Below, piece by piece: positions 2,475 through 29,080 of a stretch of DNA of 64,000 nucleotides (position 1 is the first letter of the stretch; each line of letters opens with the position of its first letter). The stretch covers positions 124,001-188,000 of the forward strand of contig CANGYF010000007.1 of the NCBI GenBank assembly GCA_947458265.1, read 5' to 3'. The stretch is from Betaproteobacteria bacterium (lineage in GTDB: Bacteria > Pseudomonadota > Gammaproteobacteria > Burkholderiales > CAIKXV01). The translations under genes and the position numbers were made by a program. Under the pieces are notes generated by a model. The model ran no database searches. It saw only the letters and a list, made by a program, of their open reading frames with translations, and was not told where the DNA came from.

Positions 2475-2517
2475 GGGTTCACCTTTCGCCGTCGTGGCGC
2501 CCTGCGGGCGACGGCCT

Positions 2518-3090: not shown

Positions 3091-3136
3091 GCGGGCAGGC
3101 CCCGTGTCCCCGATGCAATGCGACGATGGTAGCGAA

Positions 3137-9713: not shown

Positions 9714-10252
9714 TCCTGAACCAGCGTGAAGCGGCTGCCGTCGGCATGGGTGGCGCCAAGCGGGGCCCGTCGCACCTGCACGCCGCCACCGAACCGCAGC
9801 ACGCAGGCGTCGATCAGGCCGTGCGCAAGCGCGTCCATGCAGCGCGGCGAACGGTAGTCGAGCACGAGCGTGCGCGCGTCCGGACGGCTGATCTCGAATG
9901 CAGGCAACTCGGCATCCGGATAGAGCTTGCGCACTTCGACGTGGATAACCTCCTCGATGCCGGCCAGCATCGAGAATGCGTCGCGATGCTCATCGACGAA
10001 CACGGGGAACGCCGTCGCGAGCGAAGTGAACAGCCCAGTGCCGAACCAGTGCAGCACATCATCGGTCGGCTGTCCGGTGCGTGCCGCCAGTGCCACCACC
10101 AGTTTCACCATCTCCCGATGGTCGTAGGTGCCGACGGAGGTATAGGCGCCGCCAGACGGAAGGTCGCAGGAATCGATGAGATCGTCCACCATCGCGGGCG
10201 ACCAGGTACGTTCCACGAACTCCAGGAACTCCGTAAAGACCATGCCCTTCAT
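9710..10252 (-). CDS. H-NOX heme nitric oxide/oxygen-binding sensor protein
   Basis: A 180-residue stand-alone H-NOX (HNOB) domain, the bacterial relative of the soluble guanylate cyclase heme domain. It starts MKGMVFTEFLEFVE as in the family. The proximal heme ligand is His104 in VIHVEVRKLYP. The porphyrin-propionate motif YxSxR is Y133-S135-R137. The length equals that of other single-domain H-NOX proteins. It comes first in a two-gene unit with the kinase. Such pairs usually detect low NO and control biofilm or quorum behaviour. A distal-pocket Tyr, which favours O2 binding, cannot be judged by eye. Confidence 0.95.
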   Translation of the reverse strand: MKGMVFTEFLEFVERTWSPAMVDDLIDSCDLPSGGAYTSVGTYDHREMVKLVVALAARTGQPTDDVLHWFGTGLFTSLATAFPVFVDEHRDAFSMLAGIEEVIHVEVRKLYPDAELPAFEISRPDARTLVLDYRSPRCMDALAHGLIDACVLRFGGGVQVRRAPLGATHADGSRFTLVQE

Positions 10253-10264
10253 GCGCCCCCCACC

Positions 10265-10279
10265 TGAACCAGTGAACCA
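10265..10279. repeat. direct repeat TGAACCA-N-TGAACCA upstream of H-NOX
   Basis: Two exact 7-base copies of TGAACCA (10265-10271 and 10273-10279) are separated by one base. They begin 13 bases upstream of the H-NOX start codon. An 8-base period is not a full helical turn, so a classical dimer site is uncertain; the repeat may be chance. Confidence 0.35.
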
Positions 10280-10331
10280 ATGGACAAATAAGCCAAGCAG
10301 GCGTAACGGCCGTGGCGCACGAAACTTGAGC

Positions 10332-10348
10332 GCCGCCTCCCCGGCGGC
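10332..10348 (-). terminator. hairpin downstream of the dnaE-cupin genes
   Basis: GCCGCC (10332-10337) and GGCGGC (10343-10348) form a 6-bp GC stem with a 5-base loop, 54 bases past the cupin stop and before the H-NOX start. There is no clear T run in the leftward direction, so this is a modest candidate terminator separating two leftward units. Confidence 0.35.
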
Positions 10349-10402
10349 TGTTTCCCTGCGCGGTGCGCGCCCGACCCAAACCTCGACACTAGCACGCGGG
10401 AT

Positions 10403-10876
10403 TCAACCGAAGCGGCTGCGCATCCAGTCGCGATAGTCAGCCGCCTGCGGGGATCCTTCGGGCGGCGCGAACGGCAGCAGTTCCGCGGGTGTGCGCTCGA
10501 CGAACGGCCCGGCCTTGGCCTCGAACGCCACCGTGCCCGGCTCGAGTGCCACCAGGGAATGGATGACCCCGTGCGGAATGTCGATGCCTACCGTATCCCC
10601 GCCAGCCACCATCACCCGCTGGTCGATCACCGAACCCTGCTCATCGAACAGCAGCACGCCGATCGAACCGCGCAGCACGAACAGGGTCTCGTCCTTCGTG
10701 GGGTCCAGGTGCCGGTGCGGCGGCACGTAGGAGTCCGGCTCGATCGCATTGAGCAGCCGGTTGCTGGGATAGGCGTCCGTCGGATGGAAGTTGAAGTTCC
10801 TGCGCCGCCGCTGCGAGCCGCGCGCCTGAACCGACAGGGCATCGAAGGCCCGTGCGTCGATCCAGCGTGCAGTCAC
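10403..10876 (-). CDS. WbuC-like cupin-fold metalloprotein
   Basis: This 157-residue single-cupin protein resembles the WbuC family found in O-antigen and other clusters; its reaction is not established. Cupin motif 1 is PPHRHLDPTKDE and motif 2 lies around DIPHGVIHSL, giving the usual His/His/Glu metal site. The start is GTG at 10876, 13 bases after the dnaE stop, so it is probably cotranscribed with dnaE. No O-antigen gene is nearby, and a metabolic or metal-dependent regulatory role is equally possible. Confidence 0.85.
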   Translation of the reverse strand: MTARWIDARAFDALSVQARGSQRRRRNFNFHPTDAYPSNRLLNAIEPDSYVPPHRHLDPTKDETLFVLRGSIGVLLFDEQGSVIDQRVMVAGGDTVGIDIPHGVIHSLVALEPGTVAFEAKAGPFVERTPAELLPFAPPEGSPQAADYRDWMRSRFG

Positions 10877-10889
10877 GACCGGGCACCCA

Positions 10890-13800
10890 TCAGTACACGA
10901 TCTCGACCGCGTCCGGCTTCAGCCATTCGCCGAGATTGCCCACGAGGTCGTCGTGCAGGTTCACGTTCCAGCGCTCGCCGAGCGTGATCGGCACGGTCGC
11001 CTGGCCGTTGTCGTACAGGATCTGCACCGGGCAGGGTCCCTCACGATGCGGGCCGAGCAGGTCCTGCAGCCGGCGGATGTTCGCCTCGGGCGTCGCCGCG
11101 GCAAGCTGGCCGTTGCAGTGCAGCCTCAGGCCGCGCGCGAAGCGGTTGCGCGCGGCGGTGAGGTCGTACACCTTGTCCGCGGAGATGCGGCGGAAGGTCT
11201 CGCCCGCCTCACCGTCGGCGCCGCCACGCCGGATATCACGCACCTTCACCTCGAGCACCAGCACCGCGTCCTCGACGATCGCCTTGCGATGCTGGTCGTA
11301 CAGTTCGCCATAGAGCGTGACCTCGACCGCGGCCGTGCCATCGGACAGGGTGACCACGATCAGCCGGTTCGAGCTCTGCGTCTTCAGCTGGCGCACCGAT
11401 TCGACCACGCCGGCGATCACCTGGTTCGACTGGCCGAAGCCGCCACCACCGCCGCCGCCGCCATACTCGCCACCGCCACCGCCACCGGAGGACGGCGCAA
11501 GCGTCGCGAGCGTCGAGCGCACGAAGCGGCCGATCTCGTCGCGATACGCGGAGTAGGGATGGCCGGAGAAGTAGAAGCCGAGCGCGGCCTTCTCCTCGCG
11601 CAGCTGGACCCGCCGGTCCCAGGGTGCCGGCTCGGGCAGTGCCACCTGCGGCCGCGCCTCGGTCTCGCTGGCCCCGAACAGCGACACCTGCTGTGCGTTG
11701 CGCTCGCGCTGCTCAGCCGAGGCGATCGCGATGCCGACCCAGGACAACTGGCGGGCACGGCTGTCGTCGAGCTCGTCGAACGCACCGGCACGGACCAGCG
11801 CTTCGATCACCCGCCGGTTCACCAGTCGCTTGTCGACGCGCGCGCACAGGTCGAACACATCCCGGAACGAACCGGCCTTCGTGCGTGCCGCCGCGATCGC
11901 ATCGATCGCCGACTCGCCAGTGCCCTTGATCGCGCCCAGCCCGAAGCGGATCGTCTGCCGGTCGATCGGCACGAATCGGTACTCGCCGGCATTGATGTCC
12001 GGCGGCAGCACGCGCAGGCCGTTGTCCTTCGCGTCCTCGCACAGCGCGCGCACCTTGTCGGCATCGTCCATCACCGCCGAAAGGTTGGCAGCGAAGAAGG
12101 CGGCCGCGTGGTGCACCTTGAACCAGGCGGTCTGGTAGGCCACCAGCGCATAGGCGGCGGCATGCGACTTGTTGAAGCCGTAGCCGGCGAACTTCTCCAT
12201 CAGGTCGAACATCTCGTTCGCCCGGTCGCCGTCGATGCCCGATTTCGCCGCGCCCTCGGCGAAGATCTGGCGGTGCTGCGCCATCTCTTCCGCCTTCTTC
12301 TTGCCCATCGCCCGGCGCAGCAGGTCGGCGCCGCCGAGCGAGTAGCCGCCCACGCGCTGCGCCATCTGCATCACCTGCTCCTGGTAGACCATGATGCCGT
12401 AGGTCTCGGACAGGACTTCCTCGACACGCGGGTCGGGGTACGACACCTCATGCCGGCCGTGCTTGCGGTCGCAGAACTCCGGGATCAGGTCCATCGGGCC
12501 CGGCCGGTACAGCGCCACCAGCGCGATGATGTCCTCGAAGCGGTCGGGCCGCGCCAGCTTGAGCAGGTCTCGCATGCCGCGCGATTCGAACTGGAACACC
12601 GCCGTCGTGTTGGCGCGTGCGAACAGCCGGTAGGACTCGGCGTCGTCCAGCGGCAGCTGCTCCAGATGCACCTCGGCATCCGGGTCGATGCGCGCGATGA
12701 ACTTCAGCGTCCAGTCGAGGATGGTCAGCGTGGTCAGCCCTAGGAAGTCGAACTTCACCAGGCCCACCGCCTCGACGTCATCCTTGTCGAACTGGCTGAC
12801 CGCGGCCTCGGTGCCGGCAGCCATGTACAGCGGGCAGAAGTCGGTGAGCTTGCCCGGCGCGATCAGCACGCCGCCGGCATGCATGCCGACGTTGCGCACC
12901 ACGCCCTCCAGGCGTTCGCCCAGCGCCAGCAGTTCGGCGACCTCCTCCTCGGTCTGTTCACGGGCCTCGATCTGCGGCTCGACCTCGCGCGCGTAGATCA
13001 CGCCGGAATCGCCCTCGCCTTCGCGCCGGCGCAGCGTGACCAGCTTGCCCGGCTGGAACGGGATCAGCTTTGCGATCGCGTCGCAGAACAGGAACGGCAG
13101 GTCGAGCGCCCGGCCGGCATCGCGCACCACCGCGCGCGCGGCCATGGTGCCGAAGGTGACGATCTGCGACACGCTCTCGGCGCCGTACTTCTGGCGCACG
13201 TAGCTGATGACCTTGTCGCGCCCCTCCTGGCAGAAGTCGATGTCGAAGTCGGGCATCGACACGCGTTCCGGGTTCAGGAAACGCTCGAACAGCAGGTTGT
13301 AGCGAAGCGGGTCGAGGTCGGTGATGCACAGCGAATAGGCCACCAGCGAGCCGGCGCCGGATCCCCGGCCCGGGCCGACCGGCACCTGGTTCTGCTTCGC
13401 CCAGTTGATGAAGTCGGCCACGATCAGGAAGTAGCCGGGGAAGCCCATCTTGATGATGGTGCCGATCTCGAACGCGAGCCGCTCACGGTAGCGCGGCATC
13501 TCGCGTTCGCGCGCTTCGGCATCGGGGTAAAGCACCTGCATCCGTGCTTCGAGCCCGCGCTCGGCTTCCATGCGCAGGAAATCGTCCAGCGTCACGCCCT
13601 CCGGCGTGGGGAAGCGCGGCAGGTGGGTCTTGCCCAGCGTGAGCTCCAGGCTGCAGCGCTTCGCGACCTCCACGGTATTGGCCAGCGCGGACGGCAGGTC
13701 GGAGAAACGCCGGACCATCTCCTCGGCCGGCAGCAGGTACTGGTCGGCGGTGAACTCCTTCGGACGGCGCTGGTCTCCGAGCGAATAGCCCTCGGCGATG

Positions 13801-14456
13801 CAGACCCGGGCCTCGTGCGCCTTGAAGTCGTCCGGGTCGAGGAACTGGATCGGATGGGTCGCGACCACCGGCAGGCCGAGCCGAGAGGCAAGGGACGCGG
13901 CGGCGCGCAGCTGCGGCTCGTCGTCCGGATGGCCGGCGCGCTGCAGCTCGAGGTAGAACCGCCCCGGGAATCGACCGGCCCATTCGCGCGCGAGCGACTC
14001 GGCGAGCGCACTGTTGCCAGCAAGCAGCGCGGCGCCGATCTCACCCCGGCGCGCACCGGAGAACGCGATCAGGCCGTCGGATCCGTCGCCGTCGAGCCAT
14101 TCGCGGCGCAGCTCGGGACGCCCGCGATGCTGGTTCTCGCGGTAGGCGCGGGTGATCAGCTCGCACAGCCGCCGGTAGCCGGCCGGCGACTGGCAGAGCA
14201 GCAGCAGGCGCATCGGCCGGTCGCGGTCTGCCTCCTGCGTGACCACCATGTCGACGCCGGCGATCGGCTTCACCCCGCGCGCCATCGCGGCACGATAGAA
14301 CTTGATCAGCCCGAACAGGTTCGCCGAATCGGTGATCGCCAGTGCCGGCATGCCGAGCGCCTTCGCGCGCTCGAGCGCGGCCTCGGGCTGCAGCAGGCCG
14401 TCGCTGACCGAATACTCGCTGTGCAGGCGAAGGTGGACAAAGGCTGGCTGGGGCAT
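10890..14456 (-). CDS. dnaE: DNA polymerase III subunit alpha
   Basis: The replicative polymerase, 1188 residues. An N-terminal PHP domain starts FVHLRLHSEYSVSDG. The catalytic core has the metal-binding aspartates in PDFDIDFCQEGRD and the PGRGSGAGSL fingers segment. The helix-hairpin-helix region contains LGAIKGTGESAID, and a C-terminal OB fold follows. Just before the OB fold is an unusual glycine-rich insert: six Gly, EY, then eight Gly (11436-11492). The gene reads away from a 226-base gap shared with the DUF4124 gene. A leftward TAAAAT element near the start could be its -10 box, but no good -35 is visible. Confidence 0.97.
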   Translation of the reverse strand: MPQPAFVHLRLHSEYSVSDGLLQPEAALERAKALGMPALAITDSANLFGLIKFYRAAMARGVKPIAGVDMVVTQEADRDRPMRLLLLCQSPAGYRRLCELITRAYRENQHRGRPELRREWLDGDGSDGLIAFSGARRGEIGAALLAGNSALAESLAREWAGRFPGRFYLELQRAGHPDDEPQLRAAASLASRLGLPVVATHPIQFLDPDDFKAHEARVCIAEGYSLGDQRRPKEFTADQYLLPAEEMVRRFSDLPSALANTVEVAKRCSLELTLGKTHLPRFPTPEGVTLDDFLRMEAERGLEARMQVLYPDAEAREREMPRYRERLAFEIGTIIKMGFPGYFLIVADFINWAKQNQVPVGPGRGSGAGSLVAYSLCITDLDPLRYNLLFERFLNPERVSMPDFDIDFCQEGRDKVISYVRQKYGAESVSQIVTFGTMAARAVVRDAGRALDLPFLFCDAIAKLIPFQPGKLVTLRRREGEGDSGVIYAREVEPQIEAREQTEEEVAELLALGERLEGVVRNVGMHAGGVLIAPGKLTDFCPLYMAAGTEAAVSQFDKDDVEAVGLVKFDFLGLTTLTILDWTLKFIARIDPDAEVHLEQLPLDDAESYRLFARANTTAVFQFESRGMRDLLKLARPDRFEDIIALVALYRPGPMDLIPEFCDRKHGRHEVSYPDPRVEEVLSETYGIMVYQEQVMQMAQRVGGYSLGGADLLRRAMGKKKAEEMAQHRQIFAEGAAKSGIDGDRANEMFDLMEKFAGYGFNKSHAAAYALVAYQTAWFKVHHAAAFFAANLSAVMDDADKVRALCEDAKDNGLRVLPPDINAGEYRFVPIDRQTIRFGLGAIKGTGESAIDAIAAARTKAGSFRDVFDLCARVDKRLVNRRVIEALVRAGAFDELDDSRARQLSWVGIAIASAEQRERNAQQVSLFGASETEARPQVALPEPAPWDRRVQLREEKAALGFYFSGHPYSAYRDEIGRFVRSTLATLAPSSGGGGGGEYGGGGGGGGFGQSNQVIAGVVESVRQLKTQSSNRLIVVTLSDGTAAVEVTLYGELYDQHRKAIVEDAVLVLEVKVRDIRRGGADGEAGETFRRISADKVYDLTAARNRFARGLRLHCNGQLAAATPEANIRRLQDLLGPHREGPCPVQILYDNGQATVPITLGERWNVNLHDDLVGNLGEWLKPDAVEIVY
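11436..11492 (-). repeat. in-frame poly-glycine codon repeat within dnaE
   Basis: GGC/GGT codons run through this stretch and encode two glycine tracts (six and eight residues) split by EY, next to two serines. It falls in a loop before the OB fold. The repeated triplets could slip in replication, so length may differ between strains. Confidence 0.8.
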
Positions 14457-18361: not shown

Positions 18362-19426
18362 TCAGGCGATGGCCAGGGCCTGCACCACTTCCGCGGTGAA
18401 CGCGGTGGTGCCCAGCGGTCCACCGAGGTCGCCGGTGCGGCGCTTCGGATCGACGATCACCGAGTCGATCGCCCGCTCCATCGCGGCGGCGGCCTCGACC
18501 AGCTTCGCATTGCCGGTGCGCCGGCCGTACCAGTCGAACAGCATGCCGGCGGACAGGATCAGCGAAGTCGGGTTGGCGATGCCCTTGCCGGCGATGTCGG
18601 GGGCCGAACCGTGTTGTGCCTGGGCAACGCAGAAATCGTCGCCCTGGTTGGTCGAGCCGGCCAGGCCGAGGCTGCCGGACAGTTCGCCGGCTTCGTCGGA
18701 CAGGATGTCGCCGAACATGTTCTCGGCCATCACCACGTCGAACTTCGACGGATCGCGCACCAGCAGCGCGGCCATCGCATCGACGATCTTCTCTTCGACC
18801 TCGACATCCGGGTAGTCCTTGGCCACCGCGCGTGCCTCGCGCAGCCAGAGGCCGTCGGACATCTTCATCACGTTGTGCTTGTGCACGATGGTGACTTTCT
18901 TGCGGCGTCCGCGTGCCAGTTCGAACGACACGACGGCGATCTTGCGCGAGGCCTCGGCGGTGATCTTGCGCACCGCGATCGCGATGTCCGGCGTCGGCAT
19001 GAACTCGCCCACGCCCATGAACATGTTGCGGTCGGCGTAGAAGCCCTCGGTGCACTGGCGCACGATGATCAGGTCCATCGGCAAGCCGACGCGCGACAGG
19101 CCCATCCGGCTCTTCGCCGGGCGGATGTTCGCGTAGAGGTCCCACTTCACGCGGAACTCGCCCGACGGGTTGATGCCGCCCTGGTCGCGGGGCGGGTAGT
19201 CGAGATGCGACACCGGGCCGAGGATCACGCCGTCGCAGTGGGCGACCTTGGCGCGCACATGGTCGGGGAAGGTGGACTTGTACTTCTCCAGCGCCGGGAA
19301 GCCGATCAGGTCGTGGTCGTACTTCAGCCCGAGGCCGAATCGAGCGTCGGCCGCGTTGCAGACGGCAAGCGTCGCATCGGTGATCTCGGGGCCGATGCCG
19401 TCGCCCGGCAGAACCAGCAGTTTCAT
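18362..19426 (-). CDS. isocitrate/isopropylmalate/tartrate dehydrogenase-family protein
   Basis: A 354-residue NAD(P)-dependent beta-decarboxylating dehydrogenase. I choose ATG at 19426 because MKLLVLPGDGIGPE is the family N-terminus; upstream frame would add 40 unrelated residues. The metal-binding aspartates are in NMFGDILSDEAGEL, followed by GLAGSTNQGDD and the cofactor region AQHGSAPDIAGKGIANP. It could oxidise a malate-, tartrate- or isopropylmalate-like substrate; true leuB normally sits with leuCD, which are absent. It follows the MoeA-PBP gene by 143 bases. Confidence 0.9.
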   Translation of the reverse strand: MKLLVLPGDGIGPEITDATLAVCNAADARFGLGLKYDHDLIGFPALEKYKSTFPDHVRAKVAHCDGVILGPVSHLDYPPRDQGGINPSGEFRVKWDLYANIRPAKSRMGLSRVGLPMDLIIVRQCTEGFYADRNMFMGVGEFMPTPDIAIAVRKITAEASRKIAVVSFELARGRRKKVTIVHKHNVMKMSDGLWLREARAVAKDYPDVEVEEKIVDAMAALLVRDPSKFDVVMAENMFGDILSDEAGELSGSLGLAGSTNQGDDFCVAQAQHGSAPDIAGKGIANPTSLILSAGMLFDWYGRRTGNAKLVEAAAAMERAIDSVIVDPKRRTGDLGGPLGTTAFTAEVVQALAIA

Positions 19427-19569
19427 TGCTACTCCTCTCGCGCCGTCCGGGACTGTCACCGGGCCGGCAAACCCCCGATGATCGCACGGTCGGCCGGGCT
19501 CAGGCCAGCCGCGGCAGCGGCGCCAGCGCGCGGCCCGGCGTGCCAACAGGCGGATGTGCCTGGACCGGG

Positions 19570-21516
19570 CTACAGGCGGAAGCCCAGCGCCACGAGCCGC
19601 TGCCGTACTGCCGGTTCCTGCAGCAGCAGGATGAACGCGCGCACCGCAGGCCGCGCCGCCCTCGCCTCCGGCACCACGAAGTCGTAGTGCTCTTCCTGCA
19701 TCGGGATGAAGCCGAGGCCGTATTGAGCGGCGACGGTATCGATCGCGATGCCCCAGTCCGCACGCCCTTGCGCGACGGCCGCCGCCACCGCGTTGTGCGA
19801 TTTCGTCTGCACGCCGTACCCCGCTGGCTGTCGGCCGTCGAGCAGCCGGTCGACCAGTACGCGCGTACCGCTGCCCGGGTTGCGGTTGACCAGCGTGCAG
19901 TCTGCATCGGCTAGCGCCACGGCGACCGCTTCGGCGAGCGACCGGCCTTCGAAACGCCCGTCCCCCGGACGGAACACCAGCCCCTGCATGCGCCGATAGC
20001 CCTCGACCAGCAGCAGGCCGTCATCGAGGAGGTGGCGGTTGTAGGTGCCGGTCGCCGGATCCATCAGGTGGATACCGGCGATGTCGCACTCGCCCCGCCG
20101 TGCCGCGGCCAGGCCACCCATGCTGCCGACATGCAGCGCCTTCACGCTCGCGCCCCGTACCTGCAACTCGCCGAGCAGCGCATCCAGCCCGACGCAATGG
20201 CTGCCAATCGCCACCAGGCCGGGGGCTTCGAGCCCCGAGCCGAGCAGTTGCACGTCGACCGGCGTGTCGGCAGCGACGATCTCCTGGTGCTGCCCGATGG
20301 TGACGAAGCCGTCGGCCTGGCTGAACGCGGTGACCGAGCCGGAGCCCTTGCCCATCGGATAGGCGGCAAGGCCGGCCTCACCGTCGAACAGCCCCACCAG
20401 CAGGTACTCTGTACGCCCGCGCTCCGAATTGATGCGCACCGGCAGCTTCGCCTGTACCGACTGCCTTCTTTCGGGCGGCAGCCCGGCGAACGCGCGCAGC
20501 ACCGGCGCGACGAACTCGTGGAAGGTGAAGATCGCCGAGGTCGGGAAGCCGGGCAGGATCACCACCGGCTTGCCATCGGTCACCGCGAGACAGACCGGCT
20601 TGCCCGGCTTGAGCGCGACGCCGTGCGCGACGATGCCCGGGTTGCCCAGCTGGCTCACCACCCGGTACGAGAGATCACCCGCGCCCTTGGACGTGCCGCC
20701 GGACAGGATCACCATGTCCGCTTCCATCCCGCGTGCGAGCACCGCCTCGAGCTGTGCATCGTCGTCCGCGACGATGCCGAGCTGGATCGGCTCACCGCCG
20801 AGTTCCTCCACCGCAGCCCCGATGATCGCCGCATTGGAATCGAACACCGCGCCGGGACGGGGCGGCGACCCGGGCGCGACGATCTCGTTGCCGGTGGACA
20901 CGATCGCCACCCGCGGCCTGCGCCAAACCTCGACCTCGGCCAGCCCGATCGCGGCGAGCACGCCGATCTCGCGCGAGGTAAGCCGCTGGCCCTGGCGCAG
21001 CACCGTCTCGCCGCGCGCGATGTCGGTGCCGGCGAAGGTGATGTTCTGCCCGGGCGGCACCGAGTTGCGACATTCCACGCCGCCGTCATCAGTGGCCTCG
21101 GTCTGCTCCACCATGATCACCGCATCGGCGCCGCGCGGCAGCATGCCGCCGGTGGCGATGATCGACGCCCGACCGCTGGCGACAAGCTCGGCCGGTGCTC
21201 GACCTGGTTCGATCACCTCGTCGTTGAGCGCGAGACGCCGTGGGCTCTCCTCCATGGCACCGAAGGTGTCGGCGGCGACCAGGGCGAAGCCGTCGACATT
21301 GGAGCGATCGAAGGCCGGCACGTCGACCGGCGACATCACGGTCGCGGCCAGCACGCGGTGCAGTGCGTGGCCGAGCGGCACCGTCTCGCGGCCCAGTGGC
21401 GCGAGCAGCAGGTGGCGGCGGAAGCGGTCGGTGGCTTCGTCGCGGGTGATGACTTCGAGGAACTGCTCCTGGCGCGCGGCGCTGCGTGCACCGGCCTTGC
21501 TGGTCTTGTCCGGCAT
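19570..21516 (-). CDS. MoeA molybdotransferase fused to a periplasmic-binding-protein-like domain
   Basis: A 648-residue fusion. Residues 1 to about 430 are MoeA, which inserts molybdate into adenylylated molybdopterin: VPAFDRSNVDGFA, IATGGMLPRGADAV, VSTGNEIV and ILSGGTSKGAGD are seen. Residues about 450-648 are a PBP-like (LysR-substrate-like) domain, including GSMGGLAAARRGECDIAGIHL and NRNPGSGTRVLVDRLL. That domain is thought to bind molybdate or tungstate, but this is not proven. ATG at 21516 is preferred to TTG at 21525. It lies 31 bases after a second moeA. Confidence 0.93.
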   Translation of the reverse strand: MPDKTSKAGARSAARQEQFLEVITRDEATDRFRRHLLLAPLGRETVPLGHALHRVLAATVMSPVDVPAFDRSNVDGFALVAADTFGAMEESPRRLALNDEVIEPGRAPAELVASGRASIIATGGMLPRGADAVIMVEQTEATDDGGVECRNSVPPGQNITFAGTDIARGETVLRQGQRLTSREIGVLAAIGLAEVEVWRRPRVAIVSTGNEIVAPGSPPRPGAVFDSNAAIIGAAVEELGGEPIQLGIVADDDAQLEAVLARGMEADMVILSGGTSKGAGDLSYRVVSQLGNPGIVAHGVALKPGKPVCLAVTDGKPVVILPGFPTSAIFTFHEFVAPVLRAFAGLPPERRQSVQAKLPVRINSERGRTEYLLVGLFDGEAGLAAYPMGKGSGSVTAFSQADGFVTIGQHQEIVAADTPVDVQLLGSGLEAPGLVAIGSHCVGLDALLGELQVRGASVKALHVGSMGGLAAARRGECDIAGIHLMDPATGTYNRHLLDDGLLLVEGYRRMQGLVFRPGDGRFEGRSLAEAVAVALADADCTLVNRNPGSGTRVLVDRLLDGRQPAGYGVQTKSHNAVAAAVAQGRADWGIAIDTVAAQYGLGFIPMQEEHYDFVVPEARAARPAVRAFILLLQEPAVRQRLVALGFRL

Positions 21517-21547
21517 GCGGTCCAACCCGGGTGGCGGGTGTCGGATA

Positions 21548-22786
21548 TCAGGGCTCGTAAAGGTACACGTCGACGGCGGTGCCTGCCGCCTGGCCTTCGC
21601 TGTCGCCGGGGACGATCACGAAGCCGTCGGCGCGGGTGGTGGACGACAGGATCGATGCGCCGCTCAACGCGAGCGGCTCGGCGCCGTCCTCGCCCAGGCG
21701 CACGCGGCAGTAGTCGACCCGGCCGACCTGCGAGGCGATCTTGCGGGTGAGCAGCACGCGGCGCACCGGGTGCGGCCATCCGGACGGGCGGCCGCCGAGC
21801 ATGCGCAGTGCGCGGCCGGCGAAGAAGTCGTAGGCGCACAGGCAGGACACCGGGTTGCCCGGCAGCAGGAACACCAGCGCAGCGCCGACCCGTCCGAAGC
21901 CGGCCGGGCTGGACGGTCGCATCGCGACGCCATGCACGCCGAGCTCGCCTTCAGCCGCGACGATGCCCGGCGCATGGTCCTCGCTGCCGACGCTGGAGCC
22001 ACCGGAGACCAGCACCACATCGGCACCGGGCGCGCAGATCGCCTCGCGGATGGCTTCGCGCCGGTCGGCGACATGCAGCACGGGTTCGAGATCACCGCCA
22101 TCGCGCACGGCCAGCCCGCAGAGCATGCTCGAGTTCGCGTCGTAGACCTGGTGCAGGCCCTTCGGCGTGCCGGGCAGCGCCAGTTCGTCGCCGGTGACCA
22201 CGATGCGCACCCGCGGGCGGCGCACGACCTGTGCTCGGTCCAGGCCGATCGAGGCGATCAGCCCGACGTCCTGCGCCCGCAGCCGGCGCCCGGCCGCGAG
22301 CAGCAGCGATCCCTCGGCCACGTCCTCGGCACGGCGCCCGACATGCTTGCCCGGTGCCAGCGGCGCGGTGACCTCGACCCGGCCATCGCGTTCGGTCGCG
22401 TACTCGGCTGGTACCACCGCATCAGCGCCGTCCGGCAGCGGCGCGCCGGTCATGATGCGCACGGCGCTGCCGATGCCGACACTGCCTTCGTAGGGTCGCC
22501 CCGGCAGCGCCTGGCCGACGACGGCGAACGACAGCGGGTTGTAGTCGCCGGCGCCGTTGGTCCCGGCGCCGCGCAGCGCATAGCCGTCCATCGCGGAGCG
22601 GTCGAACGACGGCACGTCCATGGTCGAGTGCAGGTCGGCGGCCAGCACGCGACCATGCAGCGCGTCGAGCAGCACTACCTCGGGGCCGAGCACTGCGGCC
22701 TGCGCGTCGATCCAGGCCAGCGCATCCTCGACCGTGGCCCGCGCGGAGAAGCCGCGCATGCGTACATCCTGCACTGGTGCGGTCAT
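21548..22786 (-). CDS. moeA: molybdopterin molybdotransferase MoeA
   Basis: A 412-residue stand-alone MoeA of ordinary length, with VPSFDRSAMDGYA, IMTGAPLPDGADAV, IVVTGDELALPG and VLVSGGSSVGSEDHA. It catalyses the last step of Mo-molybdopterin assembly in the cytosol. It is 34 bases after the nitrile hydratase alpha-type gene and upstream of the MoeA-PBP fusion. Two MoeA paralogues in series may specialise, for example for molybdenum and tungsten or for different cofactor forms. No molybdoenzyme is visible in the window. Confidence 0.93.
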   Translation of the reverse strand: MTAPVQDVRMRGFSARATVEDALAWIDAQAAVLGPEVVLLDALHGRVLAADLHSTMDVPSFDRSAMDGYALRGAGTNGAGDYNPLSFAVVGQALPGRPYEGSVGIGSAVRIMTGAPLPDGADAVVPAEYATERDGRVEVTAPLAPGKHVGRRAEDVAEGSLLLAAGRRLRAQDVGLIASIGLDRAQVVRRPRVRIVVTGDELALPGTPKGLHQVYDANSSMLCGLAVRDGGDLEPVLHVADRREAIREAICAPGADVVLVSGGSSVGSEDHAPGIVAAEGELGVHGVAMRPSSPAGFGRVGAALVFLLPGNPVSCLCAYDFFAGRALRMLGGRPSGWPHPVRRVLLTRKIASQVGRVDYCRVRLGEDGAEPLALSGASILSSTTRADGFVIVPGDSEGQAAGTAVDVYLYEP

Positions 22787-22820: not shown

Positions 22821-23489
22821 TCAGGGGGCGAGCGCCTGCGACACGCCGATCATGCTGTCGCGGGTGACCAGGCCGGCGAGCCGCTGTTCGTCCCAGCCGT
22901 CGGTGCCCTCGGGACGCAGCGGGATCACCAGGTAGCGCATGTCCGCGGTGGAGTCCACGACGCGGATCTCGCGCTGGGCAGGCAGCTCGGTGCCGAACTC
23001 ACTGAGAACGGCACGCGGCTCGATCACCACCCGCGAACGGTACTCGCGGCTCTTGTACCAGGCGGGCGGGATGCCGAGGATGTTGCGCGGATAGCAGGAA
23101 CACAGCGTGCAGCACACCACGTGGTGCAGCTGCGCCGTGTTCTCGAGCACGGTCAGCTCCGGCGTGTTGGCCAGGTCGAGGTCGAACGCCCGTCCCAGTG
23201 CCAGCTTGGCGTCGGCCAGCAGTGCCGCACGGAACGCATCGTCGAGCCAGGCCCGCGCGATGATCGCGGCACCGAGCGCCGGGGTGCGCGATTCGGTCAG
23301 GTCGATCTGGCGCTGCAGGTCACCGGCAGTGAACACCCCCTTCTCGACCAGCAGTTCACGCAGGGCCTGCTCCATCAGCAGCGATTCGGGCTGGTAGTGG
23401 TCCAGGTCGTCGACCGGCGCATGCGGATGGGCATCGCCATCATGGTCGTGGTCATGGTGGACGTGGTCGCCATGGTCGTGGACGGTCAT
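22821..23489 (-). CDS. nitrile hydratase alpha / thiocyanate hydrolase gamma-type metal subunit with His-rich N-terminus
   Basis: This 222-residue subunit carries the non-corrin cobalt or non-heme iron site of nitrile hydratases. The claw motif is C127-T-L-C130-S-C132. Thr in CTLCSC is the cobalt-type form (iron-type has Ser), so cobalt is predicted. An additional Cys126 precedes it. PPAWYKSREYRSRVV downstream is also family-typical. Residues 4-31 contain ten histidines in an Asp/His-rich tail not normal for the family; it may bind metal. It overlaps the preceding gene by four bases (ATGA). Substrate could be a nitrile or thiocyanate. Confidence 0.9.
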   Translation of the reverse strand: MTVHDHGDHVHHDHDHDGDAHPHAPVDDLDHYQPESLLMEQALRELLVEKGVFTAGDLQRQIDLTESRTPALGAAIIARAWLDDAFRAALLADAKLALGRAFDLDLANTPELTVLENTAQLHHVVCCTLCSCYPRNILGIPPAWYKSREYRSRVVIEPRAVLSEFGTELPAQREIRVVDSTADMRYLVIPLRPEGTDGWDEQRLAGLVTRDSMIGVSQALAP

Positions 23490-23800
23490 CGGGAGCCTTC
23501 CGGTGCGGCGTCAAGTGGCTGGAGCCAGTGTTCGAACAGGTCGGCGATGATCCGGTAGGGAGCCTCGCGCAGCCGGTCTCCCCACACCTCGGCAGCATCG
23601 AACTCGACCTGGTACAGCGTGAGCGCCGGCAGGCCGGGCTTGTGGTACGCCAGCGCTTCCGGGTTCGGGTAGCGACCGAGCGCACGCACCACCACCCCGC
23701 GCTTGCCGCGCAGGTAATGCGGCGTGCGGCAATGCGTGGACGGCTCGCCGGTGAGAACAGTGACCGGCATGCCGGCGGGCAGCGGCTGGCGCGCGCTCAT
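23486..23800 (-). CDS. nitrile hydratase beta C-terminal-type (ScnA-like) SH3-fold subunit
   Basis: This 104-residue protein matches only the C-terminal SH3-like half of nitrile hydratase beta. It has the conserved THCRTPHYLRGKRGVV segment, whose Arg contacts the oxidised cysteines in known structures, and ends LFEHWLQP. Thiocyanate hydrolase alpha (ScnA) has this same composition. It overlaps its neighbours by four bases on each side, so all three subunits should be made in equal amounts. Confidence 0.87.
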   Translation of the reverse strand: MSARQPLPAGMPVTVLTGEPSTHCRTPHYLRGKRGVVVRALGRYPNPEALAYHKPGLPALTLYQVEFDAAEVWGDRLREAPYRIIADLFEHWLQPLDAAPEGSR

Positions 23801-24114
23801 GCACCCGCCCTGCGCGCTGCGGCAAGCGTGGCCATGCGCTGCTCGAGTTCCGTCTGGCCGACCAGCCCGCGCTCGATCGCCAGCAGGCGCACGGCCCTCA
23901 ACCAGCGTTCATAGTAGGACAGGTCGTGGTAGGCCTGAGGATCGAGCGACTCGATGCACCGGCGCATCGCATCGACGGTGAAATGGCCCTTCTGCGGATG
24001 GGCGAGCAGGCGCAGCATCGCATCGACGCGCTGGTCGAACAGCGTGCGTGCATGCTCGGCCCGCTGGATCGGACCGGCCGGGTCGCCACCCATGTCGTGA
24101 ACGCTCTTCACCAT
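23797..24114 (-). CDS. nitrile hydratase beta N-terminal-type (ScnB-like) subunit
   Basis: This 105-residue protein matches the helical N-terminal half of nitrile hydratase beta. It starts VKSVHDMGGDPAGPI, compared with the family VHDLGG, and has AYHDLSYYERWLRA and ERGLV. The VHDxGG start argues against the small activator proteins that share the helical region. It is the first of three overlapping subunit genes, begins 4 bases after the Bug receptor stop, and the N-C-alpha order is that of thiocyanate hydrolase scnB-scnA-scnC. Confidence 0.87.
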   Translation of the reverse strand: MVKSVHDMGGDPAGPIQRAEHARTLFDQRVDAMLRLLAHPQKGHFTVDAMRRCIESLDPQAYHDLSYYERWLRAVRLLAIERGLVGQTELEQRMATLAAARRAGA

Positions 24115-24118
24115 GGCC

Positions 24119-25165
24119 CTATTCTGCCTTGATCCCGGCCGCGCGGATGATCTTGCCCAGCGCGTCGATCTCCGACTTCAGGAACGCGCCGAACGCCTGC
24201 GGGCTGCTCGGCCAGGGCTCCGCATAGAGCGTGGCCAGCCGCTCCTTCAGTTCCGGAGTCGCCAGCGCGCGCCCGATCTCGGCATTGATCGCCGACACGA
24301 CGCCGGCCGGCGTGCCGCGCGGCGAAACGAGGCCCCACCACTGCATGATCTGGTAGCCGGCCAGCCCCTGCTCGGCCATCGTCGGGATCTCGGGCGTCAG
24401 GCTGTGCCGCTTCGGTCCGGTGGTGCCGACCGCGCGCATCTTGCCCGCCTTCACCAGCGGCATCGCCGCAAGCATGCTGCTGGCCGAAAACGACACCTCG
24501 CCGCCTGCAAGCGCCGCCAGGGCCGGCACGGCGCCCTTGTAGGGCACGACGGTGAACTCGAACTTGCCCATCATCCGGAACAGCTCGCCGCTCAGGTCTC
24601 CGGTCGTGCCCCGGCCCGGCGATCCGAAGTTGAACTTCCCCGGGTTGGCGCGCGCGAAGGCGATCAGTTCCTGCGCCGTCTTCGCCGGCACGACGTTGGC
24701 GACCGTCACCACCTGCGGCGCGGTCGCGATCCCGCCCAGCGGCGTGAAGTCGCGCATCACGTCGATCGACAGCTTGCTGTAGAGCGAAGGCAGGCTGGCC
24801 AGCGCGGGCTCCGCCAGCATCAGGGTGTAGCCGTCGGCTCCAGCGCGGGCGGTGAGTTCGGCCGCGATCAGGCCACCGGCCCCGGTACGGTTGTCGACGA
24901 TCGTGGTCTGGCCCCAGGACTGGCTGAACTGGGCACCGATCGTGCGCGCCATCACGTCGGCGGCACCGCCAGCGGCGAACGGCACGATGAAGCGCACCGG
25001 CTTGACGGGGAAAGCCTCCGCCGCGGCGACGGCGCCCGGGGCGAGGCAGGACAGGCAGAACATCGACGCGATCGCGGCATGGATCTGGCGGGGAACGCGA
25101 CCGGCGAGGCGGTTCACCGGGGTCGCTGCGAGCAGGTCTGCGTGGGCAATCGGGCGCATCGTCAT
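24119..25165 (-). CDS. Bug/TctC-family solute receptor in the nitrile hydratase operon
   Basis: A 348-residue periplasmic receptor; after a long leader (signal-like segment to about residue 50) the mature start is FPVKPVRFIVPFAAGGAAD. TIVDNRTGAGG and ANPGKFNFGSPGRGTTG are typical. It overlaps the amidase stop by four bases and is followed 4 bases later by the hydratase subunits. It is therefore a likely binder of the nitrile, amide or acid processed by this operon. No cognate TctAB membrane subunits are present in the window. Confidence 0.93.
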   Translation of the reverse strand: MTMRPIAHADLLAATPVNRLAGRVPRQIHAAIASMFCLSCLAPGAVAAAEAFPVKPVRFIVPFAAGGAADVMARTIGAQFSQSWGQTTIVDNRTGAGGLIAAELTARAGADGYTLMLAEPALASLPSLYSKLSIDVMRDFTPLGGIATAPQVVTVANVVPAKTAQELIAFARANPGKFNFGSPGRGTTGDLSGELFRMMGKFEFTVVPYKGAVPALAALAGGEVSFSASSMLAAMPLVKAGKMRAVGTTGPKRHSLTPEIPTMAEQGLAGYQIMQWWGLVSPRGTPAGVVSAINAEIGRALATPELKERLATLYAEPWPSSPQAFGAFLKSEIDALGKIIRAAGIKAE

Positions 25166-26832
25166 TCTCCAGGAAGCGTGCAGGAATCGAAACGGAAGGC
25201 GCTGGCCGGTTCGGCCGCGCGCGCCAGCGGTTCGCGGATGCGGCGGATCATCGCGAACGCATGCGGGGCGGCGCGCAGCAGCAGTTCGAACCGGCGTTCG
25301 TCGAGGTCCAGCCCGGCCTGGCCGGCCAGCGCCGCAGCAGCGGCGCGCACCTGCGGCGTCACGCGCGCATCCAGCGGCGCCGCCGGCGCCAGCTCCACCG
25401 GCGGACGCGGTGTACCAGGCACCAGCACAGGCCGGCGCGCCTGCCAGCCGGTCGCGCGTTCATAGGCATGGCCGACGCGCAGCACGGTCGACTCATCGAA
25501 CGGACGGCCACCGATCTGCAGGCCCATCGGCAGGCCGTTGCCGGCAAAGCCGCAGCAGACGATCAGCGCCGGGTTGCCGAGCACGCTGAACGGCGAGAAC
25601 AGCGACGGCTTCTCCCAGAAGGACACCGTGCGGTGCGCATCGAGCCTGGGCGCAGGACCGGCGCCAGGGGTGACGAGCACATCGAACCGCTCGTACAGCG
25701 GCAGCGCCGCCTCGAGCAGGCCGCGCCGTACCCGCTGCGCGAGCATGTAGTCGGACGCCTGGAACAGCGCGCCGGCGAGGCCGCCACGGCCGAGGAAGTC
25801 CTCGCCGAAGTCGGCGGGCCGCGACACCAGCGCGTCCCGGTAGATCGAGAACAGCTCGGACAGCGAGATCACCGTCTTCACATCGTGATAGACCTGTGCC
25901 GGATGCATCCGTATCTCTTCGACGCTCGCGCCGAGCGATCGCAGCACGTCCAGGGCCGCTTCGGTCGCGCGCACCAGTTCGGCCGGGGTGTCGACATCCT
26001 GCTCCCACAGGTGGCGGGCGACACCGATGCGCACGCCGCGCAGGTCTTCCTGCCCGCGCAGTGCGGCACGGTAGTCCGGCACCGCCCGCGCGGCGCTGGC
26101 CGGATCCGCTGGATCATGGCCGGCGATCGCCTGCAGCAGGATCGCGCAATCCTCCACCGTGCGCGCCATCGGGCCGCAGTGGTCGAAGGACCACGAGTTC
26201 GGCAGCACGCCGCCACGGCTGACCAGGCCATACGTGGGCTTGAGCCCGGCCAGGCCGCACAGCGCCGACGGCGTGCGGATCGAGCCTCCGGTATCGCTGC
26301 CGAGCGCGGCCGGGACGAAGCCGGCCGCCAGCGCGGCACCCGGACCGCTGCTCGACCCCCCGGTGATGTGCTCGAGGTTCCACGGATTGCGCGCCGGGGG
26401 CCAGGGCAGGTCGAGCGACGGCCCGCCGTGCGCGAACTCGTGCGTGGCCAGCTTGCCCAGCAGCACGGCTCCTGCCGCCTGCAGCTTCGCCACCGCGAAG
26501 CCGTCGCGCGCCGGGACATTGTCGATGCAGATGCGGGAATGGCCCGAGGTGAGCACGCCCGCGGTGTCGAAGATGTCCTTCAACGCGAACGGCATGCCAT
26601 GCATCGGCCCGCGCCAGCCACCGCCTGCGATCTCGGATTCGGCCCGACGTGCCTGCGCCAGCGCGGCATCGGCGGTGACGGTGATGAATGCATTGACCTG
26701 CGGGTCGATCGCCTCGATGCGATCGAGCAGCGAACGGGCGAGTTCGACCGGCGACAGTTGCCTCGCCGCGATCAGCTCCGCGAGCCTGGACAGCGTGAGT
26801 TCGTGCAGCGGGGCGCCACCTGCGTCACTCAC
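25162..26832 (-). CDS. amidase-signature hydrolase
   Basis: A 556-residue enzyme of the amidase signature family, cytosolic, expected to hydrolyse an amide to acid and ammonia. The Ser-cisSer-Lys triad is visible: Lys85 in FALKDIF, cis-Ser160 in GGSSSGPG and nucleophile Ser184 in SDTGGSIR. It is longer than GatA (about 480) and no gatB/gatC is adjacent, so an amide-catabolic role downstream of nitrile hydratase is favoured. The start is GTG at 26832, overlapping the kinase stop by eight bases. Confidence 0.93.
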   Translation of the reverse strand: MSDAGGAPLHELTLSRLAELIAARQLSPVELARSLLDRIEAIDPQVNAFITVTADAALAQARRAESEIAGGGWRGPMHGMPFALKDIFDTAGVLTSGHSRICIDNVPARDGFAVAKLQAAGAVLLGKLATHEFAHGGPSLDLPWPPARNPWNLEHITGGSSSGPGAALAAGFVPAALGSDTGGSIRTPSALCGLAGLKPTYGLVSRGGVLPNSWSFDHCGPMARTVEDCAILLQAIAGHDPADPASAARAVPDYRAALRGQEDLRGVRIGVARHLWEQDVDTPAELVRATEAALDVLRSLGASVEEIRMHPAQVYHDVKTVISLSELFSIYRDALVSRPADFGEDFLGRGGLAGALFQASDYMLAQRVRRGLLEAALPLYERFDVLVTPGAGPAPRLDAHRTVSFWEKPSLFSPFSVLGNPALIVCCGFAGNGLPMGLQIGGRPFDESTVLRVGHAYERATGWQARRPVLVPGTPRPPVELAPAAPLDARVTPQVRAAAAALAGQAGLDLDERRFELLLRAAPHAFAMIRRIREPLARAAEPASAFRFDSCTLPGE

Positions 26833-29080
26833 CGGCCTGCTCCGTGCCTACGCGTGCCAGCGATTGCAGCGCACGCACGAAATCCGCCGGGGACACCGGC
26901 TTGCGCAGCACCGGGATTCCGTCCTGCCCGGCAATCGTGTCCACGTTCCATGGAGCCTCCCCGGTAATGAGGACGCAGAGCGTACCGAAATCCCTCGACC
27001 GGGCAAACCGCAGCACATCCAGGCCGCTGCCGCTGGGCAGCCGGAAGTCGCACAGCACGGCGTCGAAGCGGACGGACGCGAGCCGTTCGATCGCATCGGG
27101 CACGTCGGATGCGAGCGTGACCATGGCCCCCCAGCTGGACAGCATGGCCGCGGTCGCCTCCGCCACCAGCACGTCGTCCTCGACCACCAGGATTCTGGCA
27201 GAGAGGCGCAGGTAAGCTTCGACAGCCGGGTGCGATTGCTCGATCCCCGGCTCGCACGGCTGCACGGTCACCATGAACGTCGCGCCAGCCCCCTGCGCGG
27301 ATTCGACGGCGAGCGGATGGTCCAGCAGGCGCGCGAGCTTGTCGACGATCGCCAGCCCGAGGCCGATGCCCTTGCGCCGGTCGCGCTCAGGATTGTCGAG
27401 CTGCCGGAACTCCTCGAAGATCTCGCGCTGCTTGTCTGCGGGTATGCCCACGCCGGTGTCTTCCACCGCCAGCACCAGTCCGTGAGCCCCGCGCGAACAG
27501 CGCAGCGTGACGCGGCCACCGGTCGGCGTGAACTTGATCGCGTTCGACACCAGGTTGCGCAGGATGCGGCTGAGCAGCGTCGGGTCGGAGTACACCCATC
27601 CGTCGCAGCGCATCAGCGTGAACTCGACCCCCTTCTCGGCGGCGATCGCGATGAACTCGTTGTGTATCGTGGACAGGATCGACGCCAGGGGCACCGGCTG
27701 CATGCGCGGCACGATGCGCCCGCTGTCGAGCTGCGCGACGTCGACCAGGGTCTCGACCATCGCACCCAGGTGGCTCACCGCGCGGTTGACGATCTGCGCC
27801 GAGCGCGCCTGCTGCCCGGGCGGGAGGGGGCGTGCCAGCACCTGCGCGATCAGTGCCAGGGTTTGCAGCGGCTGGCGCAGGTCGTGGCTGGCCGAGGCGA
27901 GGAACTCGGTCTTGGCGGCGCTGATGCGTACCGCCTCGTCGCGCGCTGCGCGCAGCTGGTCCTCGACCGCCTGCTTCTCGCGGATGCGCCGTCCGATCTC
28001 GTCGAGCAGGTGGTCCAGCGCGGCGGCGATCCGGTCGACCTCGCTGCGCGTGCGCAGGACGCCGGTGCGCGCCGCGAAGTTGCCCGCCTGCACCGCATGC
28101 ACCACATCCAGGATCGCCGCCAGCGGCCGCTGGATGAACAGCCGCACCAGCAGCAGCGTGAGCAGCAGCCCGGTGAACAGTGCCAACAGGGCCACTGCCT
28201 TGCTGCGCACGCTCGCCGCGTTGATCTCGCGCAGCGCACGATCGCGGTCGAGGCCGACCAGGATGCTGATGCCCTCGGGGGCCACGCTGTCCGGGACGTA
28301 GGCGACGATCTGGTCGCGGGTGTCGAAGAATGGCTCCGGTTCCTTCTCGACGATGCCGGACGAGGCGGCCTTCAGCAGCGGCGACCACGAGTCGGGCAGC
28401 AGCGCGCCGCTGCGGTCGGGGCCCGGAAGGTTCGTGATGATCCGGCCGTGCGTGTCGGCCACCACCACCAGCGCACCCGCCTGCAGCGGCTTGCGCGCGA
28501 ATTGTTCGGCCAGCCAGCTGAGCTTGAGCGAGGCGAACACGACCCCGGTCACCTGCCCGGTCCGCGCATCCTTGACCGGGTACGCGAAGCCGAACACCTT
28601 GTTCCCGGTGACCCGCCCGACGAACAGGTCGCCGATGGCGAAGCGGCCGGTCTCCATCGCCACGCGGAAGTGCCGGCGATCGGCGTTCGACACCCTGCCG
28701 CGCTCGAACGGCTCGTTCAGGCAGCGCACCACCCCGTCGGGGCCGGTGACCCCGATGTTGGACACGAACTCGAAGGCCTGCTGCAGGCGCGCCATGTAGG
28801 CATCGCAGGCGGCATCCTCGCGCAGCGCTTCGGGCGCATTGGCCGCCGCGACCAGCAGCTGCTCCATGCCGGTCACGATGCGCTGCAGCTCGCCGGACAG
28901 CATGTCGGCCTGCGCGGTCGCGGTGCGGCGCAGTTCATCCCCCCGCTCGAGGCGCAGCCGCCAGTCGTTGTAGACCTCCACCGAGACAGCGGGTACCACC
29001 GCGACAAGGAGCAGCAGGATCAGGCGTGTACTGAGCGACAAGTGGATCTCCGGGTGGGCCGGCCTGCGGGGCATGCTCAT
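26825..29080 (-). CDS. membrane hybrid sensor histidine kinase, extracytoplasmic sensor and receiver
   Basis: A 751-residue protein. Membrane segments are at about 19-37 and 307-327. Between them is a Cache-like sensor of about 265 residues (RRHFRVAMETGRFAIGD is typical). A HAMP-like linker and coiled coil lead to HisKA with SASHDLRQPLQTL. HATPase motifs are NAIKFTPTGG, DTGVGIPAD and GIGLGLAIVDK. The C-terminal receiver starts ARILVVEDD, with the acceptor Asp in LCDFRLPSGSG. It is first in the run amidase-Bug-hydratase-MoeA and overlaps the amidase. It probably senses a substrate of that pathway; no DNA-binding partner is in the window. Confidence 0.92.
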   Translation of the reverse strand: MSMPRRPAHPEIHLSLSTRLILLLLVAVVPAVSVEVYNDWRLRLERGDELRRTATAQADMLSGELQRIVTGMEQLLVAAANAPEALREDAACDAYMARLQQAFEFVSNIGVTGPDGVVRCLNEPFERGRVSNADRRHFRVAMETGRFAIGDLFVGRVTGNKVFGFAYPVKDARTGQVTGVVFASLKLSWLAEQFARKPLQAGALVVVADTHGRIITNLPGPDRSGALLPDSWSPLLKAASSGIVEKEPEPFFDTRDQIVAYVPDSVAPEGISILVGLDRDRALREINAASVRSKAVALLALFTGLLLTLLLVRLFIQRPLAAILDVVHAVQAGNFAARTGVLRTRSEVDRIAAALDHLLDEIGRRIREKQAVEDQLRAARDEAVRISAAKTEFLASASHDLRQPLQTLALIAQVLARPLPPGQQARSAQIVNRAVSHLGAMVETLVDVAQLDSGRIVPRMQPVPLASILSTIHNEFIAIAAEKGVEFTLMRCDGWVYSDPTLLSRILRNLVSNAIKFTPTGGRVTLRCSRGAHGLVLAVEDTGVGIPADKQREIFEEFRQLDNPERDRRKGIGLGLAIVDKLARLLDHPLAVESAQGAGATFMVTVQPCEPGIEQSHPAVEAYLRLSARILVVEDDVLVAEATAAMLSSWGAMVTLASDVPDAIERLASVRFDAVLCDFRLPSGSGLDVLRFARSRDFGTLCVLITGEAPWNVDTIAGQDGIPVLRKPVSPADFVRALQSLARVGTEQAGE

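What the first reader, a model, noticed from the sequence alone, without database searches (positions are those of the whole stretch)
22821..24114. Three-subunit nitrile hydratase/thiocyanate hydrolase with an ScnB-ScnA-ScnC gene order
Seen: three genes overlapping by four bases encode, in order, the beta N-half (VHDMGG), the beta C-half (THCRTPHYLRGK) and the CTLCSC metal subunit. Known: usual nitrile hydratases have two subunits; thiocyanate hydrolase and toyocamycin nitrile hydratase have three. Inference: a cobalt enzyme of the three-subunit group with unknown substrate. Subunits (105/104/222) are shorter than Thiobacillus ScnBAC.
Basis: partly seen in the sequence, partly recalled or inferred. 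Interest (0 to 1): 0.65.

Follow-up and report, generated by a model that had tools for sequence, protein, structure and literature searches.

The report
Three-gene cobalt nitrile hydratase operon
Three short overlapping genes make a nitrile-hydrating enzyme whose usual second subunit comes in two pieces; this is a common but poorly described branch of the family, most like one already purified from Streptomyces, and it is probably not a thiocyanate-degrading enzyme.

Summary
On the minus strand, 24114->22821, three genes with 4-base overlaps encode the N-half of an NHase beta subunit (105 aa), its C-half (104 aa) and the CTLCSC alpha subunit (222 aa). The split is real: it is kept across the genus. 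It is also ordinary: nearly all of the 80 nearest alphas in public genomes lie in such three-gene sets.

It is probably not a thiocyanate hydrolase. It scores 193 bits against a cut-off of 291. The Arg found in all 8 ScnB (position 90) is Met here. An activator gene lies beside 6 of 7 SCNase loci but 0 of 148 three-gene loci. In a concatenated tree the two-subunit enzymes form one side (100/99) and SCNase nests away from the window's group. Shared with SCNase are the split beta, the scnBAC order and Arg in place of the alpha Trp.

The closest characterised enzyme, by gene order, subunit size and lack of an activator, is Streptomyces canus ScNHase (AnhD-AnhE-AnhA), which hydrates organic nitriles with cobalt. 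Upstream in the same tight gene run lie a TctC receptor, an amidase and a sensor kinase, which fits uptake, then nitrile to amide to acid. Substrate unknown. New member of a known kind.

The parts
23797..24114 (-). beta-subunit N-half (bN; AnhD/ScnB equivalent), 105 aa
   Evidence: PF21006 E 3e-19; R51 (23962-23964) = NHase betaArg52 equivalent, invariant in all 211 bN aligned; phmmer matches NHase beta N-termini and weakly ScnB
23486..23800 (-). beta-subunit C-half (bC; AnhE/ScnA equivalent), 104 aa, 4-base overlap with bN
   Evidence: PF02211 E 9e-19; HxR Arg25 (23726-23728) present in every bC with a letter there
22821..23489 (-). alpha (metal) subunit (AnhA/ScnC equivalent), 222 aa, 4-base overlap with bC; His/Asp-rich N-terminus
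   Evidence: PF02979 E 7e-75; TIGR01323 231.5 bits (cut-off 249.9), TIGR03887 193.3 bits (cut-off 291.5)
23094..23111 (-). CTLCSC metal-binding claw
   Evidence: The three Cys are invariant in all 219 alphas aligned
23085..23087 (-). Arg135 codon: equivalent of SCNase gammaArg136; Trp/Phe/Tyr in two-subunit NHases
   Evidence: R/K/V in 151 three-gene-group alphas, W/F/Y in 60 two-subunit-group alphas, R in 8 SCNases; PDB 3vyg_C carries W there, 3vyh_A carries R in an NHase
24119..25165 (-). TctC-type periplasmic receptor, 4 bases upstream of bN
   Evidence: PF03401 E 3e-63; next to bN in the orthologous loci of the genus
25162..26832 (-). amidase-signature enzyme, 556 aa, overlaps TctC by 4 bases
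   Evidence: PF01425 E 8e-99; ortholog in the cluster in 7 other genomes of the genus
26825..29080 (-). hybrid sensor histidine kinase, overlaps the amidase gene by 8 bases
   Evidence: ORF and translation; ortholog upstream of the amidase in 4 other genomes of the genus
21548..22786 (-). MoeA-like protein 34 bases downstream of alpha
   Evidence: PF03453/PF00994/PF03454; conserved downstream in 6 other genomes of the genus
19570..21525 (-). MoeA fused to PBP domain
   Evidence: NF011068 767 bits, over cut-off; conserved
18362..19546 (-). isocitrate/isopropylmalate dehydrogenase-like protein (start uncertain)
   Evidence: PF00180 E 7e-84; conserved downstream in 4 other genomes at 760 bits or more, more distantly in G005

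Best explanation
A cobalt-dependent, activator-free, three-subunit nitrile hydratase of the Streptomyces canus ScNHase (AnhDEA) kind. bN and bC together form the beta side of the active site; the two beta arginines hold the oxidised cysteines of the alpha CTLCSC claw; the metal activates an organic nitrile for water attack, giving an amide (inferred from homology). bN also does the job of the missing activator, loading cobalt by subunit swapping (shown for ScNHase AnhD by others; inferred here). In this genus the genes lie in one tight run behind a sensor kinase, an amidase and a TctC receptor, so the likely pathway is: sense and bind a compound outside, take it up, hydrate the nitrile to an amide, hydrolyse the amide to acid and ammonia (inferred from gene order).
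For: Domain hits; claw invariant; both beta arginines and the beta Glu conserved as in NHases; the three-gene alpha profile scores Co-NHases up to 277 bits against 241 for ScnC (the duplicated 4ob1 chain left out). Concatenated tree: two-subunit enzymes are one side (100/99), window inside the three-gene side. An activator homologue lies beside 0 of 148 three-gene loci, against 50 of 55 two-subunit and 6 of 7 SCNase loci. ScNHase: order anhD-anhE-anhA, 10.4/11.4/21.3 kDa, 0.84 Co per mole, hydrates acetamiprid, thiacloprid and benzonitrile, AnhD acts as chaperone (PMC7329996). Amidase and TctC in the conserved gene run. Relatives beside cobalt transporters: CbtA/CbtB in Rhizobium, HoxN/NixA in Streptomyces.
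Against: Arg replaces the conserved alpha Trp, as in SCNase. The amidase link is seen in this genus and in one of 61 other upstream genes tested. The AU test does not exclude the window's group lying next to the two-subunit side (p 0.11). No activity data.
Confidence: 0.72

Rival explanations
1. A true thiocyanate hydrolase (SCNase): thiocyanate to carbonyl sulfide and ammonia.
For: Split beta, scnBAC order, Arg at the gammaArg136 place in 8/8 SCNases and here.
Against: TIGR03887 193 bits against cut-off 291.5; only 7 of 399 genomes of the order pass and this one does not. ScnB Arg90 (8/8 SCNase) is Met here and Arg in 2 of 144 three-gene bN; SCNase has Asn where NHases and this have Glu in bN, and Gln/Met for Pro in bC. 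No P15K. Window group plus SCNase as one clade: lnL 33 lower, p-AU 0.045. An amidase is not needed for this reaction.
Confidence: 0.07
2. A nitrile hydratase specialised for anionic nitriles (cyano-carboxylates such as beta-cyanoalanine or cyanoacetate), the pocket Arg binding the carboxylate and TctC bringing the acid in. A special case of the best explanation.
For: Arg or Lys at this place in all but 1 of 151 three-gene alphas; extra Arg after betaArg52 in 131 of 144 bN; TctC next to bN across the genus; TctC-type receptors mostly bind carboxylates (general knowledge).
Against: ScNHase takes neutral nitriles (PMC7329996); TctC genes are very numerous in these genomes, so adjacency is weak; the position of Arg in the pocket is inferred from alignment.
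Confidence: 0.18
3. An ordinary two-subunit enzyme whose beta gene is broken by a frameshift.
For: bN plus bC equals one beta subunit.
Against: 4-base stop/start overlap kept in nine of ten orthologs of the genus; 138 of the collected loci are split N-C-alpha with Arg; the intact two-subunit enzyme of the same genome lies elsewhere in the tree.
Confidence: 0.01

Closest known systems
Streptomyces canus CGMCC 13662 nitrile hydratase ScNHase (AnhD-AnhE-AnhA; Guo 2019, PMC7329996)
   Same: Order N-half, C-half, alpha; sizes near 10.4/11.4/21.3 kDa; no activator gene; cobalt; organic nitriles
   Different: Sequence not in hand, so identity and the Trp/Arg residue not compared; substrate range of the window enzyme unknown
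Thiobacillus thioparus thiocyanate hydrolase ScnBAC (PDB 2dd4)
   Same: Same gene order, split beta, CTLCSCYPR
   Different: SCNase subunits longer (157/126/243), betaArg90, Asn for Glu in bN, P15K gene downstream, separate branch of the tree
Toyocamycin nitrile hydratase ToyJKL (Streptomyces rimosus)
   Same: Three subunits, NHase chemistry (PMC7329996, PMC12648386)
   Different: Sits in an antibiotic cluster; sequences not available here, not placed on the tree
Two-subunit Co-type nitrile hydratases (Pseudomonas putida 3qxe, Pseudonocardia thermophila 4ob1/1ire, Bacillus 1v29)
   Same: Claw, both beta arginines, beta Glu, clear sequence homology
   Different: Fused beta, Trp for Arg, activator gene adjacent in 50 of 55 loci, other side of the tree

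Membership tests
Nitrile hydratase superfamily (Co type) | CXLCSC metal claw in alpha, CTLCSC with Tyr following for Co type | tested here: met
Nitrile hydratase superfamily (Co type) | Two beta arginines (betaArg52, betaArg157 equivalents) | tested here: met
   Invariant, present in window bN R51 and bC R25
Nitrile hydratase superfamily (Co type) | Cobalt bound; nitrile hydration | not testable with these tools
   Needs protein
Two-subunit nitrile hydratase | Single fused beta subunit | tested here: not met
Two-subunit nitrile hydratase | Activator gene beside the structural genes | tested here: not met
   in the window the only match to the activator query is bN itself
Two-subunit nitrile hydratase | NCBIfam TIGR01323 cut-off | tested here: not met
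   231.5 of 249.9 bits
Thiocyanate hydrolase (ScnBAC) | TIGR03887 cut-off for the gamma subunit | tested here: not met
   193.3 of 291.5 bits
Thiocyanate hydrolase (ScnBAC) | Split beta in order scnB-scnA-scnC | tested here: met
Thiocyanate hydrolase (ScnBAC) | gammaArg136 | tested here: met
   Arg135
Thiocyanate hydrolase (ScnBAC) | betaArg90, second selectivity Arg (role recalled from memory; residue read from PDB 2dd4_B) | tested here: not met
   Met in window, R in 2 of 144 three-gene bN, R in 8/8 SCNase
Thiocyanate hydrolase (ScnBAC) | P15K activator gene downstream | tested here: not met
Thiocyanate hydrolase (ScnBAC) | Groups with characterised ScnC in a tree | tested here: not met
   AU p 0.045 against
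Three-subunit NHase of ScNHase (AnhDEA) type | Order N-half, C-half, alpha with sizes near 100/105/200 aa | tested here: met
   PMC7329996
Three-subunit NHase of ScNHase (AnhDEA) type | No activator gene | tested here: met
Three-subunit NHase of ScNHase (AnhDEA) type | Sequence kinship to AnhA/ToyJ | not tested
   Sequences not available; a Streptomyces three-gene locus (L065) stood in and lies in another branch of the same three-gene side
Three-subunit NHase of ScNHase (AnhDEA) type | Nitrile hydration, bN as cobalt chaperone | not testable with these tools
   Needs protein

The most novel reading that the evidence does not exclude
The three-gene, activator-free, Arg-pocket enzymes are a distinct and widespread functional class, separate from classic nitrile hydratases and from thiocyanate hydrolase, whose natural substrates are anionic cyano-acids delivered by TctC receptors, with thiocyanate hydrolase a later offshoot that has an activator again.
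Probability: 0.15. Interest if true: 0.6.

Novelty: new member of a known kind. Interest (0 to 1): 0.36.

Why it matters
It corrects a likely misnaming: many three-gene NHase sets look like scnBAC by order but lack the marks of thiocyanate hydrolase, and RefSeq often calls their beta halves 'SH3-like domain-containing protein'. It offers a sharp test of what the Trp-to-Arg change and the loss of the activator gene do in this family, and a set of candidate activator-free cobalt enzymes for biocatalysis.

Tried and rejected
Frameshift or assembly break of a fused beta: rejected by conserved overlaps. Thiocyanate hydrolase: rejected on cut-off, residues, activator and tree. Arg as a mere result of splitting the beta gene: rejected, since four Trp-type loci are also split (L213-L215, L217) and two Arg-type loci are fused (L045, L225). 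His-rich alpha N-terminus as a stand-in activator special to this group: rejected, it occurs in the two-subunit enzymes and SCNases too. Aldoxime dehydratase in the own genome: no hit, but the control did not ring either, so no conclusion. CbtA in the own genome: no hit; a NicO-type transporter is present elsewhere. Conserved functional neighbours across distant relatives: mostly unrelated genes (FliG, lipid A acyltransferase, EamA). Alpha-only AU tests were not decisive (p 0.30 and 0.23). The paper on the two SCNase selectivity arginines is not in the library; that role rests on memory, while the engineered R136W and Trp-to-Arg chains are visible in the PDB sequences. No structure was predicted, since solved homologues with clear sequence similarity exist.

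Full report
What is there. On the minus strand three ORFs, 23797-24114, 23486-23800 and 22821-23489, follow each other with 4-base overlaps. Pfam gives NHase_beta_N, NHase_beta_C and NHase_alpha, all far over cut-off. NCBIfam places the alpha subunit below the curated cut-offs of both nitrile hydratase alpha (231.5 of 249.9 bits) and thiocyanate hydrolase gamma (193.3 of 291.5).

The same genome. The genome holds four alpha subunits. Two further ones sit in three-gene sets (L005, motif CYPRM; L006, CYPRS) and one in a two-subunit set with an activator gene (L007, CYPWP). All ten other genomes of the genus carry three-gene sets. The window's own set is orthologous across the genus: TctC, bN, bC, alpha in all of them, the amidase upstream in seven of the ten others, MoeA and MoeA-PBP downstream in six, other contigs being cut short or the gene absent. 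The 4-base overlap between the beta halves is kept in nine of those ten, and the frame offset in all, which rules out a sequencing frameshift.

How common it is. A scan of one genome for each of 84,980 species with the three-gene alphas kept the best 80 loci; nearly all are bN-bC-alpha, five are bC-alpha-bN. That set was chosen by likeness to the query, so it says nothing on proportions. A second, less biased sample, the matches to the SCNase gamma model in 399 genomes of the order, was fetched in large part. Of 104 loci, 44 are alpha-beta with a fused beta and Trp, 42 are split bN-bC-alpha with Arg (seven of them true SCNases), and the rest are minor forms. Records with the three-gene form include Proteobacteria, Rokubacteria, Binatota, Cyanobacteria and Streptomyces.

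Residues. The metal claw is invariant in 219 alphas. At the place of SCNase gammaArg136, three-gene-group alphas have Arg (145), Lys (5) or Val (1), two-subunit-group alphas have Trp (55), Phe (3) or Tyr (2), and SCNases Arg (8 of 8). The groups were named by this residue and SCNase status, but the tree built with that column masked gives the same division. That this is position 136 follows from the PDB chain 2dd4_C, and chain 3vyg_C has Trp there; 3vyh_A is an NHase with Arg there. In bN the betaArg52 equivalent is invariant. The residue before it is Arg in all 8 SCNases, Arg in 2 of 144 three-gene bN, and Met in the window; the Glu four places on is Glu in NHases and three-gene sets but Asn in SCNases. 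So the window enzyme shares one of the two SCNase pocket arginines and otherwise has NHase features. That these two arginines set SCNase selectivity is from memory and was not checked in a paper.

Lineage or architecture. Four Trp-type loci (L213-L215, L217) have a beta gene split at the same junction, and two Arg-type loci (L045, L225) have a fused one. The residue follows the lineage, not the gene structure.

Tree. With the Arg/Trp column masked, the alpha tree puts the two-subunit enzymes on one side at 99/93, but AU tests on alpha alone reject neither rival placement of the window (p 0.30, 0.23). With alpha, bN and bC concatenated (53 rows, 397 columns), the two-subunit side has 100/99, the window's group of six 100/99, and SCNase groups with the bC-alpha-bN loci and a Streptomyces locus at 100/99, inside a 30-row group (99/94) that leaves the window out. 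Holding the window's group with SCNase costs 33 log units (p-AU 0.045); holding it with the two-subunit side costs 12 (p 0.11). The window is thus on the three-gene side and not a near relative of SCNase; the deepest branching order stays open.

Activator. Homologues of the two-subunit activator or of P15K lie beside 50 of 55 two-subunit loci and 6 of 7 SCNase loci, but beside 0 of 148 three-gene loci. This matches what was reported for Streptomyces canus ScNHase, which has the order anhD-anhE-anhA, subunits of 10.4, 11.4 and 21.3 kDa, no activator, cobalt, and activity on acetamiprid, thiacloprid and benzonitrile; AnhD (the N-half) serves as cobalt and swapping chaperone (PMC7329996). The lack of an activator thus seems to be a trait of the whole three-gene group, which I have not seen stated in the papers read.

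Function. A cobalt nitrile hydratase is the best reading. The gene run sensor kinase, amidase, TctC, NHase genes (gaps or overlaps of at most 8 bases) suggests that a compound is bound outside, taken up, hydrated to an amide and hydrolysed. The amidase link holds within the genus but not in general. Cobalt is supported by the motif and by cobalt-transporter genes beside two relatives. The substrate is unknown; a cyano-acid is possible given the pocket Arg and TctC.

Known or new. Three-subunit NHases are known (ScNHase, toyocamycin NHase). This is a new member. What is added is the evidence that such sets form a large group, Arg-marked and activator-free, mostly distinct from thiocyanate hydrolase although the gene order is the same.

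Noticed in passing
L213, L214, L215 (G257, G286, G038) and L217 (G002): Trp-type nitrile hydratases close to Pseudomonas putida NHase whose beta gene is split in two at the same junction as in the three-gene group, in the order alpha-N-C with a 1-base stop/start overlap: an apparently independent split.
   Followed up: partly
L230 (G244:C71), frame 2013-3146 minus: A beta N-half fused in one ORF to an Arg-type alpha subunit; no C-half found nearby.
   Followed up: no
L225 (G367) and L045 (Nodosilinea): Arg-type loci in which N- and C-halves are one ORF, upstream of alpha.
   Followed up: partly
window 19570-22786: Two MoeA-type genes directly downstream of the NHase genes, kept across the genus, although no molybdoenzyme was recognised nearby.
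   Followed up: partly
L251 (Rhizobium leguminosarum plasmid NZ_CP030764.1): A set with alpha between two SH3-like beta halves beside CbtA/CbtB cobalt transport genes, a cytochrome P460 and a sulfite oxidase.
   Followed up: no
L005, L006, L118-L146: Each NHase set of this genus lies next to one or more TctC receptor genes; TctC genes are very numerous in these genomes.
   Followed up: no
hits H22-H24, H33-H35: Nitrile hydratase alpha genes on plasmids of Klebsiella, Citrobacter, Pantoea and Acinetobacter isolates.
   Followed up: no
window 8253-14456: Possible ImuA/ImuB/DnaE2-type mutagenesis cassette (judged from ORF starts and lengths only).
   Followed up: no
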